From Arctopsyche grandis (Eukaryota > Arthropoda > Insecta > Trichoptera > Hydropsychidae), in assembly GCF_051622035.1 (NCBI RefSeq), contig NC_135360.1, forward strand, positions 9,042,001-9,106,000: a DNA stretch of 64,000 nucleotides, in the 5' to 3' direction. A program made the translations under genes and the position numbers. Positions 16,543 through 42,450 of the stretch are shown one piece after another. The first letter of the stretch is position 1. Each line of letters opens with the position of its first letter. The notes beneath the pieces are model-generated. The model saw only the letters and a program-made list of their open reading frames with translations. It made no database searches and was not told the origin of the DNA.

Positions 16543-38458
<21,916 letters not shown>

Positions 38459-38680: not shown

Positions 38681-39837
38681 GTGGACCCTGTAACGAAGTC
38701 TAAAATGTCCAAATATTGCGAGTGCATCTTGCACTAACAATGGAAAGCGGACTGCATCAATACATCGTGATCTGCATCGTTCGTGAGTAATTGATTCGAA
38801 TTAAATTGTCACGTCGCTATGTCCTCGGATTCAAGTCGTCTTGTCAATTCAACTCCATTTCAGACGATGGTGATGGAATTTTTAATATATTAATTAATTC
38901 AAAAAGTTCAATATTTTCTAATACCAAAACGATAAGCGCTTCATTAGCAAAGGAGACAAAAAAATCAATTTGACCAATCTTTGCCTGCCCCCCCCAAGAA
39001 AAAGCTGAAATGACGTCCCTGATTGTTTTCTACCGAAAGTAAAAGCAGCTTTTATGCCGCATTCTTTTATGATGCATTCTATTTACCTAGGACAAGGGTT
39101 AAAATGAAATATACAATGTAATTTATGAATCTATTTTGCTTTAGCCATTTTTCTTGTACCTAAATTTGTTTATTCCCAATTTTGAAAATTCAATTTATTT
39201 TTTACCCTTGATTTTTAGCGTGATGAAAAGAAATAAATTTTGTTATATGGGGGGGGGGGGGGATTTTTTTAACCCTGGATGGGCCCCCTTTGACTTCTGG
39301 CAAGCACTAATTTCAGTCCCAGTCCGCCACTGGGTATTGGTATATACATATACATGTGCTAAGCCCGCTTTAAAGGTCACGAAATTTGACCCTTAAAGAC
39401 CTTAAGGCCACCACCCCCCTCCAACGAATACAGTCCAAGAGACCCTTTCGTCGGAGAACGAGACGGTTGTTCATGAATATCGCACCAGAACAACCGCACA
39501 TCACTGTTCTAATAAAAAAACCACACTGTACATAACCAAGTACAAAATTAACAACAACGCATGAACACATAAAGCGCGCATGCGTTAGATACCCACGCAA
39601 ATGTTGAAACTTACATTTCGAGCCTAATAAAAAAAAGTTAACCGATCCTTGGGCTGTTAAAGCAGGTATTAGTTCTTTGTGTATATCGTAAGAAATTTGT
39701 TTTGTTGAAATACCCAAACCTTAGGTCCTAAAGTGCAATATCCTATAAATTTTTACACACGTGAAATAGTTAAAAAGTTATTTAATTTTACTGAGGGCCC
39801 ATATTTTCTAACAGATACTGGGGCCCACATATATATA
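38681..39837. other. transposon debris, no gene seen
   Basis: It contains a hAT-like terminus CAGTCCGCCACTG ending at 39332, a terminal-like GACGTCCCTG near 39012, a G-run (39251-39262) and an unrecognised minus-strand frame at 39370-39717. I cannot assign whole elements. Confidence 0.4.
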
Positions 39838-40760
39838 TTGACGGCTTTGTCTATGCTGTCAATTGAAAAAAAAATGATGATGAACAGTGAAAAATTTAAC
39901 GAAAAGGTGATTGAAGGTCAAGGAAAAAAGACATTATATGTATTTTATTGCATTATAAAATTGATTCTTCTGTCTTTTTTCCTTAACCTTCAATCACCTT
40001 TTCGTTAAATTTTTCACTGTTCATCATCATTTTTTTTCAATTGACAGCATAGACAAAGCCGTCAATCTTTCCTGAACCATTGTGTTTCTTATATATGTAA
40101 GTCTTTATTCTATTTATTGATGAAAAACACCGTTCTGGCTCAGAGGTACGGCTTTGTCTATGCTGTCAATTGAAAAAAAATGATGATGAACAGTGAAAAA
40201 TTTAACGAAAAGGTGATTGAAGGTCAAGGAAAAAAGACATTATATGTATTTTATTGCATTATAAAATTGATTCTTCTGTCTTTTTTCCTTAACCTTCAAT
40301 CACCTTTTCGTTAAATTTTTCACTGTTCATCATCATTTTTTTTCAATTGACAGCATAGACAAAGCCGTCAATCTTTCCTGAACCATTGTGTTTCTTATAT
40401 ATGTAAGTCTTTATTCTATTTATTGATGAAAAACACCGTTCTGGCTCAGAGGTACGGCTTTGTCTATGCTGTCAATTGAAAAAAAATGATGATGAACAGT
40501 GAAAAATTTAACGAAAAGGTGATTGAAGGTCAAGGAAAAAAGACATTATATGTATTTTATTGCATTATAAAATTGATTCTTCTGTCTTTTTTCCTTAACC
40601 TTCAATCACCTTTTCGTTAAATTTTTCACTGTTCATCATCATTTTTTTTCAATTGACAGCATAGACAAAGCCGTCAATCTTTCCTGAACCATTGTGTTTC
40701 TTATATATGTAAGTCTTTATTCTATTTATTGATGAAAAACACCGTTCTGGCTCAGAGGTA
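39838..40760. repeat. three tandem 306-bp units, each a long hairpin
   Basis: The units restart at 39841, 40148 and 40454 (ACGGCTTTGTCTATGCTGTC). Each contains arms of about 93 bp, one mismatch apart, from GACGGCTTTGTCTATGCTG to GGAAAAAAGACA and back, around a loop of about 38 nt. A spacer of about 90 bp ends CCGTTCTGGCTCAGAGGT. Spacer and arm, read on the minus strand, are the transposase end of the hAT family seen at 28330-28400 and 30130-30290 (PERCFSSINRIKT). The three units look identical except for one base in an A-run. Confidence 0.92.
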
Positions 40761-41853
40761 GTTGAAGTTGTAAGCAGAATTTGAATAAGTTTTGTTATTT
40801 CCACACGAACTTTGCATAAATTGATTAAAAAATATGTTTTAAAAATATTAATAAATCATTAATACCTACTATGCATTTCTATCCTTGAGTAAAAAACTTC
40901 TAATTCAGTTTGAAATTTTTCTTTATCTAACATTGGATATGATTCAACGGTTAGTAGTAGATCTTCCATTGGCATTTTCTTTCAGTACTTTTCAAAATTT
41001 TCTTTATTAAATAATTTCACAGCTTTTAATTGATTAGAAAAAGTATATCTTTCTTTTATATCCTTAATAATAACATCACACATATTTTTGGCTTCTATAA
41101 TATGTGCGATAATATATGCATATAATATATGCATCACATACTTTTGGAATCTCATATTTGTATAATGACATTAGTAAAACTTTTTAAGTTTTCTTTAATT
41201 GAAAATGCATCGATATTACTATGTTAGATTGCATTTGGTTATAAATAATTTCTACATGCGGTATTAACTTGTGAAAAAGTTCTGACTAAAATAAAAAATT
41301 GTATTCAGTAAATTGGTAGAATCTGTTATTGTTTTATCAGTATTTTCGGAAGAATATTTAAGTTCTTGAAAACATTGTCTCAGCTTCTCTTAATTTTGAT
41401 ACCATCTTAAATACTTAAAGTGACGTGTAGAAACGTAGAAAGTGTAAGAGGTGTAGAAGGAAAAACAAAAGGTGCAGAAGAAATGACGAAAAGTGAGGAG
41501 CGTGTCGAGCGCGCGGCGCGGCGCGCACACGAACGCAACAAGAAATGTATATAGTGCTGTTGGGAGTGCAGTACCGACCAAGCTTCTAGCTGCCCCCGCG
41601 CCCCTCCTTCGCCCACTCGGCATATTCCATCGAAAACCGTACTGCACAAAATCATAAACGATGACTCACTTTCTGATATTAGTACAGCGATGTATGATCA
41701 TTATTGGATGTATCGGTGTGCAGGCGAGCTTAATAATAAATAATATTGATATTTTTATATAATATACATACATTTATGTATATAATAATATTAAATTTTT
41801 CTCAATTTCCTTGGGGGTGCTGCAGTACCACAGTGCGTATGGACGAGCCGCCA

Positions 41854-41856
<3 letters not shown>
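40761..41856 (-). pseudogene. hAT transposon 5' half, inverted and degenerate
   Basis: Read on the minus strand it starts at the terminus CAGTGGCGGCTCGTCC (41856) and passes a GC-rich block at 41480-41650 that is shared with 27935-28110. It then enters coding sequence equivalent to MPKEDLLLTIESY (here MPMEDLLLTVESY near 40970) with stops and frame breaks. It is continuous with the hairpin array at 40760, which replaces the normal 3' end. Confidence 0.8.

Positions 41857-41906
<50 letters not shown>
41857..41906. repeat. (TA)n microsatellite
   Basis: Pure TA repeat directly abutting the hAT terminus, possibly its AT-rich target. Confidence 0.9.
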
Positions 41907-41909
<3 letters not shown>

Positions 41910-42450
41910 GAATGTTTGTCTGTCTGTCTGTCTGTCTGCCTGTTTGTCTGTCTCGAATAGGTTTCTAAACTACTGAACCGGTTACGATGGAACTTTCAGG
42001 ATTTTTTGTATGCTTGTCCGGGAAGATTACTTTGAAAAAAAAACGGGATAAAACCTCTCAGTAATAATATTCGTAATTATGATTTTATCGACGCGAAAGT
42101 ATGAAGCGCCAGTTGGTAGTTAAGGAAAATTTTACCTTGGTAACCAACATGCGCGCACGCATGCCAACGTACAAATACATTACGTACCACTCATACCAAC
42201 TTGACATTACGTACCACTCATAACAATCCTACATATGTATATAAATCAATGTTTGTCTGTCTGTCACGTATGCCATCCTATACTATAATTTAATTTCGTT
42301 TTTAAGTATTAATTTGAAACTGAGACATTCACTTATCGAAACGCATCGAGAAACGGGAACGGGAACGGGAATTGCATGCGTTCATGTACGATGGAACGAT
42401 GGAACTTTCAAGATTTATTGAATGCATGTACGGGAAGCTTATTGTAAAGA
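41907..42450. repeat. two copies of a TGTC-microsatellite-linked repeat
   Basis: A (TGTC)n run leads into a block with ACGATGGAACTTTCA and a GGGAAG-type segment at 41910-42030. The same order recurs at about 42247-42445. This tetranucleotide-plus-block arrangement is typical of microsatellite-associated dispersed repeats in insects. It lies where the kelch-repeat exons of the pseudogene should be. Confidence 0.6.

What the first reader, a model, noticed from the sequence alone, without database searches (positions are those of the whole stretch)
39838..40760. Three identical tandem copies of a long-hairpin unit made from a hAT transposase end
Each 306-bp unit holds inverted arms of about 93 bp (one mismatch) around a loop of about 38 nt. 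The units repeat three times with essentially no divergence. One arm plus the spacer is the normal 3' end of the local hAT transposase. The other arm is a fold-back copy of the same stretch. The array ends where the element's own 3' terminus should be. Near identity implies very recent amplification of a snap-back structure, which could also make dsRNA.
Basis: partly seen in the sequence, partly recalled or inferred. Interest (0 to 1): 0.8.

Follow-up and report, generated by a model that had tools for sequence, protein, structure and literature searches.

The report
Triplicated fold-back end of a transposon
One copy of a common, partly deleted hAT-type jumping gene lost its left end, carries an inverted copy of its own neighbouring sequence in its place, and that hairpin block is repeated three times almost without change: most likely a repair scar, whose wider interest is that such blocks are the raw material for gene-silencing hairpin RNAs.

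Summary
Window 39837-40759 holds three head-to-tail units (307, 306 and 306 bp; units 2 and 3 identical, unit 1 with one extra A in an A-run), each with ~93-97-bp inverted arms around a 37-bp loop. They sit at the left end of a non-autonomous hAT-type element. In 39 other fetched copies the usual element is ~1.3-1.5 kb with CAGTGGCGGCTCG ends and 8-bp target duplications. The window copy lacks its first 110 bp, left TIR included, and carries the reverse complement of an internal stretch instead. The fold-back junction has 3-bp microhomology (ACA) and has no other match within 3 mismatches in the 475.7-Mb assembly. The left neighbour is a truncated copy of a second hAT-type family.

Best explanation: end loss at a DNA break, fold-back (snap-back) priming and repair synthesis, joining to flanking DNA through an AT tract, then a younger tandem triplication. 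Fold-back repair of this kind is described in yeast. I have no evidence for transcription or selection; a nascent hairpin-RNA locus is possible but untested. Reads could not be examined, so an assembly error is unlikely but not excluded. New member of a known kind; modest interest.

The parts
39841..40147 (+). Array unit 1 (307 bp; one A more in an A-run than units 2 and 3)
40148..40453 (+). Array unit 2 (306 bp)
40454..40759 (+). Array unit 3 (306 bp, identical to unit 2), running straight into the element body
39837..39933 (-). Left (fold-back) arm of unit 1: reverse complement of element positions 151-246 (L009 element numbering)
   Evidence: 97.9% over 97 columns, minus strand; pairs I7 and I10
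39934..39970 (+). Loop of unit 1 (37 nt), ordinary element sequence
39971..40066 (+). Right arm of unit 1, in normal element orientation; carries the single G->A that makes the one arm mismatch
39931..39933 (+). Fold-back junction microhomology ACA (shared by the inverted source and the native sequence)
40543..41856 (+). Body of the non-autonomous hAT-type element from its position 111 on (97% identical to L009 element positions 111-1414); its first part overlaps unit 3
41844..41856 (+). Intact right terminal inverted repeat CGAGCCGCCACTG
41857..41864 (+). TATATATA after the right end (would be the 8-bp target duplication; lies inside a (TA)25 run)
40856..41110 (-). Coding remnant, 85 codons with one internal stop and two stops at its end; no Pfam match; transposase-like by recall only
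39830..39837 (+). TATATATA at the left junction: filler or remnant of the target duplication, undecidable here
39592..39830 (+). Left neighbour: 239-bp fragment of a second, very abundant hAT-type family (B), cut off 40 bp before its own right end

Best explanation
A ~1.4-kb non-autonomous hAT-type element was broken at or near its left end. The break end lost about 110 bp, left TIR included. Its 3'-ending strand (the minus strand here) folded back, its terminal TGT pairing with an ACA 37 nt inward on the same strand, and was extended by ~93 nt along itself. The new end was joined through a short AT tract to neighbouring DNA, a truncated copy of another hAT-type family. Later the 306-bp block (left arm, loop, right arm, tail) was duplicated in tandem through a 1-bp junction (GAGGTA/CGGC) and reached three copies, by slippage or unequal exchange. 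Shown in the assembly: the structure, the lost end, the junctions, the order fold-back then duplication, and no second site with this junction. Inferred: the break, the fold-back priming and its polarity, the mode of duplication. The array most likely does nothing.
For: Alignment with the 12 copies first fetched shows where the normal sequence stops: native ...AAAATTAA|ACATTATATG... (some copies AAAATGAA), window ...GGAAAAAAG|ACATTATATG.... Junction sources and the ACA microhomology. Fold-back 27-mer with up to 3 mismatches: 3 hits in the assembly, all in this array; backwards control 0. Of 39 other copies 35 have a left TIR by my pattern, 28 have both ends, and 27 of those 28 have 8-bp TSDs with at most one mismatch (23 exact). 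In 0 of 39 loci does a comparison with the element show an inverted copy of its left part (its exceptions are told in Tried and rejected). Duplication younger than the copy's own divergence: 11 sites in 1297 at which the window departs from both L009 and the majority base of nine copies, 8 of them unseen in any of the nine, against no substitution among the units; at 11/1297 one expects 5.1 in 604 duplicated bp, P0 0.006; at 8/1297, by arithmetic, 3.7 and 0.024. Precedent: yeast break repair by fold-back with a 41-nt loop and 0-5 bp (median 2) microhomology at the captured end (PMC11724301, abstract and section 15 read).
Against: A 3-bp or longer match at a random junction between this element and its reverse complement arises 7.5% of the time, so the microhomology is weak evidence; replication-fork template switching predicts the same product. 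The yeast fold-backs rested on a 10-bp imperfect match, and most were ~5-34 bp, though local ones from 10 to over 150 bp are reported. For animal TIR elements PMC8277862 found break-induced gap filling inside elements more compatible with its data than excision (passages), so a transposase cut as the trigger is not favoured. The origin of the AT tract at the left junction is ambiguous. Near-identity of units could reflect gene conversion rather than youth. No reads were available.
Confidence: 0.72

Rival explanations
1. Replication-based template switching (fork stalling, MMBIR or ODIRA-like) in an AT-rich, repeat-rich stretch made the inverted segment and the tandem copies, without a free double-strand end.
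For: Short microhomologies at two junctions (3 bp and 1 bp); a (TA)25 run and fragments of other elements nearby; in animal Pack-TIRs microhomology of 1-36 bp, median 2, was present at one breakpoint or more of 190 cases (67.6%) (PMC8277862, passages read).
Against: Loss of the terminal part of the element and a short loop fit an end-primed fold-back more simply; this is a judgement, not a test.
Confidence: 0.17
2. A nascent hairpin-RNA locus: the array is transcribed and its ~95-bp duplexes are diced into siRNAs that silence the element family, and the tandem copies were selected.
For: Very stable hairpin; 372 matches (174+198) to the family's left end as possible targets; tandem hpRNA arrays exist in Drosophila, hp-CG4068 with 20, 9, 14 and 10 copies in four species (PMC10317233, passages); Mu killer, an inverted partial transposon copy, silences MuDR (PMC3440606, start of abstract in a listing).
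Against: No transcript or small-RNA data held; no Rfam match in 39300-41900; the arms lie outside the coding remnant; a single three-copy array that drift can explain.
Confidence: 0.05
3. Assembly artefact: one fold-back unit, or none, expanded by the assembler or created by a chimeric (fold-back) read.
For: Fold-back chimeras are a known library artefact (recalled); reads could not be checked.
Against: The array is only ~920 bp in a contig of 34.75 Mb; unit 1 has its own A-run length and 4 extra nt of arm; a chimeric read would not by itself remove the left TIR and join a fragment of another family.
Confidence: 0.06

Closest known systems
Fold-back templated insertions / inverted duplications at double-strand breaks (yeast; PMC11724301 abstract and section 15, PMC10622511 abstract)
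   Same: Inverted copy of sequence beside a lost end, short loop (37 nt here, 41 nt in yeast), microhomology at the fold-back and little at the other join
   Different: Only a 3-bp fold-back match here against an imperfect 10 bp; inverted copy of ~93-97 bp; followed by tandem triplication; inside a transposon copy
Tandem hairpin-RNA loci of Drosophila (hp-CG4068 cluster, hp-tHMG cluster; PMC10317233, passages)
   Same: Tandem array of near-identical long hairpins
   Different: No evidence here of transcription, siRNAs or a gene target; three copies only
Mu killer (maize; PMC3440606, start of abstract in a listing)
   Same: Inverted copy of a part of a DNA transposon that could give hairpin RNA against its family
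   Different: [quoted passage not shown] this is short, subterminal and untested
Foldback/Galileo-type elements with long internally repetitive TIRs (PMC3573991, start of abstract in a listing only)
   Same: Tandem repeats and snap-back sequence near a transposon end
   Different: Those are family-wide TIR structures; here one end of one copy, with that end's TIR lost

Membership tests
Non-autonomous hAT-superfamily element (window copy) | 8-bp target-site duplication (definition recalled) | tested here: inconclusive
   27 of 28 relatives with both ends have it with at most 1 mismatch; the window copy has TATATATA on both sides, but in (TA)n sequence and next to a truncated element
Non-autonomous hAT-superfamily element (window copy) | Short terminal inverted repeats at both ends | tested here: not met
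   Right TIR intact, left TIR absent in the window copy; both found in 28 of 39 relatives. The copy is a broken member by sequence identity (97% over 1.3 kb to L009)
Non-autonomous hAT-superfamily element (window copy) | Recognisable hAT transposase domain in the family | tested here: not met
   No Pfam match in the window copy, L009 or a 91-aa relative fragment; not required of a non-autonomous element, and no full-length relative was examined
Hairpin-RNA (hpRNA) locus | Long inverted repeat able to form a hairpin transcript | tested here: met
   as predicted folding of the sequence only
Hairpin-RNA (hpRNA) locus | Transcription and Dicer-2-dependent siRNAs | not testable with these tools
   no RNA data held
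Foldback-type transposon | Long repetitive inverted repeats at the ends of many mobile copies | tested here: not met
   fold-back junction found only in this array; not seen in 39 of 39 other copies
Fold-back repair product | Inverted copy adjoining a deleted end with microhomology at the switch | tested here: met
   (3-bp ACA; 7.5% by chance)

The most novel reading that the evidence does not exclude
This is a tandem hairpin-RNA locus caught at birth: a fold-back repair accident on one transposon copy, already amplified to three units, that makes siRNAs against a family with hundreds of copies. It would show that trap loci against DNA transposons can arise in one repair step rather than by insertion of a second copy.
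Probability: 0.05. Interest if true: 0.65.

Novelty: new member of a known kind. Interest (0 to 1): 0.27.

Why it matters
It is a clean case of fold-back rearrangement inside a transposon end, with junctions, order of steps and relative ages readable from sequence, and so a test case for how tandem hairpin arrays begin. As it stands it is a single-locus scar without shown function.

Tried and rejected
Considered that the array is a mobile variant end (a new hAT terminus): rejected, since the fold-back junction has no second site in the assembly. Considered that the exact TATATATA before the array proves a transposase cut at the left end: dropped after the left neighbour turned out to be a truncated family-B element. 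Considered sequence likeness between the outer arm (ATTGACGGCT) and the TIR (AGTGGCGGCT): noted by eye, not tested, too short to use. The sigma-70 promoter scan has no bearing on a eukaryote. Searches for a formal transposase match gave nothing (one search gave two chance-level PDB hits, E 0.22 and 0.47; one search was run on 33001-36000, which is not the element). Of the literature searches I saw listings; four papers were opened (PMC11724301 abstract and section 15; PMC10317233 and PMC8277862 passages; PMC10622511 abstract). I make no claim that such an array is absent from print.

Rows, limits and results against my reading: the genome DNA search scored 40 of 394 candidates, so the 39 relatives are the best-matching part of a family whose left-end 29-mer has 372 matches. 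The age comparison used 9 of the 12 copies first fetched (L010, L015 and L020, without both ends, were left out), and sites beside an alignment gap in the right arm are not among the 11 counted. L036 has both ends but its two 8-mers agree only when shifted by one base; it was counted as a miss. Four of 39 copies have no left TIR by my pattern: L020, L038 and L044 start at element positions 73, 60 and 21; L046 was not looked at further. In one search L024 showed a 41-bp hit on the other strand (element positions 1315-1355) about 750 bp from its copy, L041 a second, 68% copy, and L038 the end of another copy at the locus edge; I do not count these as fold-backs. The inverted-repeat scan found arms of 25 bp or more near 6 of the 39 loci (L012, L018, L019, L035, L044, L047; up to 187 bp in L047); by their coordinates those of L018, L019 and L047 lie outside the element sequence, the others I did not resolve one by one, but one search shows no element stretch in both orientations in them. 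A search for other family-B copies ending in CACATATATATA did not complete, so the origin of the AT tract stays open.

Full report
Observation. The array is real in the assembly. TRF finds one 306-bp-period array at 39841-40760 with 3.0 copies and 99% matches. Exact comparison gives units of 307, 306 and 306 bp; units 2 and 3 are identical and unit 1 differs by one A in an A-run. Each unit contains inverted arms around a 37-bp loop, with one mismatch. As single-stranded RNA one unit (39838-40143) folds at -164.2 kcal/mol, against a shuffle mean of -51.1 (sd 4.8, 100 shuffles, none as good).

Setting. The window lies in a 34.75-Mb contig of a 475.7-Mb genome of 189 contigs, by size a eukaryote; I did not identify the species. 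The first genome search (40 of 394 candidates scored) returned the three units whole and 39 other places that match loop + right arm + tail, and the left arm only as the complement of that right arm. I fetched all 39. They are copies of one element with ends CAGTGGCGGCTCG.../...CGAGCCGCCACTG. By pattern, 35 of 39 have a left TIR, 31 a right TIR, 28 both; of these 28, 23 are 1.28-1.48 kb, four 0.83-0.87 kb and one 1.77 kb; 23 have exact 8-bp TSDs, 4 have one mismatch and 1 (L036) does not match in register. That is the hAT pattern (superfamily definition from recall). The left-end 29-mer with up to 3 mismatches occurs 174+198 times in the genome, backwards control 0, so the family has hundreds of copies.

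What is different in the window copy. Its right end is intact at 41856 and followed by TATATATA. Its body from 40543 to 41856 is 97% identical to the L009 element (24 differences in 1301 aligned bases, 1.84%). At the left, the normal first 110 bp are absent. In their place lies the reverse complement of element positions 151-246. The native sequence reads ...AAAATTAA ACATTATATG...; the inverted source reads ...AAAAAAGACAGAAG...; the product reads ...AAAAAAGACATTATATG: a 3-bp microhomology, ACA. A random junction between the element and its complement shares 3 bp or more 7.5% of the time, so this alone is weak. The 27-mer across this junction has no other match within 3 mismatches in the genome; the backwards control is also zero. 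None of the 39 other loci shows the element's left part in both orientations (details and exceptions in Tried and rejected).

Order of events. The left arm starts at 39837, four bases before the repeated unit starts at 39841, and the tandem junction (GAGGTA/CGGC) is the same at both joins. So the fold-back came first and the tandem duplication cut into it. The right arm's G->A and two other substitutions (40562, 40712) are present in all three units, so they are older than the amplification or were spread by conversion. The left arm keeps the base seen in L009. The window departs from both L009 and the majority of nine copies at 11 sites in 1297, 8 of which are seen in none of the nine, while the units differ by no substitution. 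At the higher rate 5.1 changes are expected in 604 duplicated bases and none would be seen with probability 0.006; at the lower rate, by arithmetic, 3.7 and 0.024. The amplification is therefore probably younger than most of this copy's divergence, or the units have been homogenised.

The left neighbour. Window 39592-39830 is 97-98% identical to a second very abundant element (2312 first-look candidates, 40 scored), whose right end in the seven copies looked at continues ...CACATGCCATCGGGCATGTTCGCTTGTATGGCCAGTCCGCCACTG. The window fragment stops at CACAT, 40 bp short. Between it and the array is only an AT tract. Further left, 38955-39349 matches another part of such elements in inverted orientation at about 90%, with an end motif at 39332. 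The TATATATA that precedes the array equals the right-hand 8-mer, but because of this neighbour and the (TA)n context it cannot be taken as proof of a preserved insertion site.

Coding content. On the minus strand at 40856-41110 there is an 85-codon stretch with one internal stop and two stops at its end; it reads to me like part of a hAT transposase (recall). Its 42-residue stop-free part has 150 scored matches (of 303 candidates) in the genome. No Pfam family matches in this copy, in L009, or in a 91-residue open stretch of a relative, and the PDB gives two chance-level hits. No full-length relative was examined. The array lies outside this remnant, about 100 bp beyond its last stop.

Mechanism. 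The anatomy fits fold-back-primed repair: a broken or resected left end, a 3'-ending minus strand whose terminal TGT pairs with ACA 37 nt inward, extension by ~93 nt along itself, and joining of the new end to what lay beyond. In yeast, breaks give local fold-back insertions through a hairpin with a 41-nt loop, completed by end joining with 0-5 bp (median 2) microhomology (PMC11724301, abstract and section 15 read). Fold-back priming with polymerase delta fill-in is also described in PMC10622511 (abstract read). The differences are the short 3-bp primer match here (10 bp imperfect in yeast) and an inverted copy longer than most of theirs. Replication template switching remains the main rival. 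That a transposase cut started it is possible but not shown; PMC8277862 (passages) favours breaks within elements over excision for related gap-filling events, and three other copies here start inside the left end without a fold-back (L020, L038, L044).

Function. A tandem array of long hairpins resembles hpRNA clusters such as hp-CG4068 (20 tandem copies in D. melanogaster, 9 in D. simulans; PMC10317233, passages read), and an inverted transposon copy can silence its family in maize (Mu killer; PMC3440606, start of abstract in a listing). I had no RNA data, so nothing here shows transcription, small RNAs or selection. I put this at about 5%.

Verdict. It is a clear instance of a known kind of rearrangement.

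Noticed in passing
window 39592-39830 and 38955-39349: Two pieces of a second, very abundant hAT-type family (right end ...GGCCAGTCCGCCACTG), one forward and cut short, one inverted with an end motif at 39332; the region left of the array is a patchwork of transposon pieces.
   Followed up: partly
window 27722-28399, 30091-30419, 32320-32779: Further pieces of the same element family as the array host (77-94% identical to the L009 element), on the minus strand.
   Followed up: no
window 38111-38458, minus strand: 115-aa open frame with a signal-peptide-like start and several cysteines (reading by eye); possibly a small secreted protein gene ~1.4 kb from the array.
   Followed up: no
window 41913-41953 and 42240-42265: TGTC-repeat tracts right of the element's (TA)25 run and again ~300 bp on; they may be parts of another repeat family.
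   Followed up: no
window 26909-27232: A long AT dinucleotide tract, 163 copies at 97% matches.
   Followed up: no
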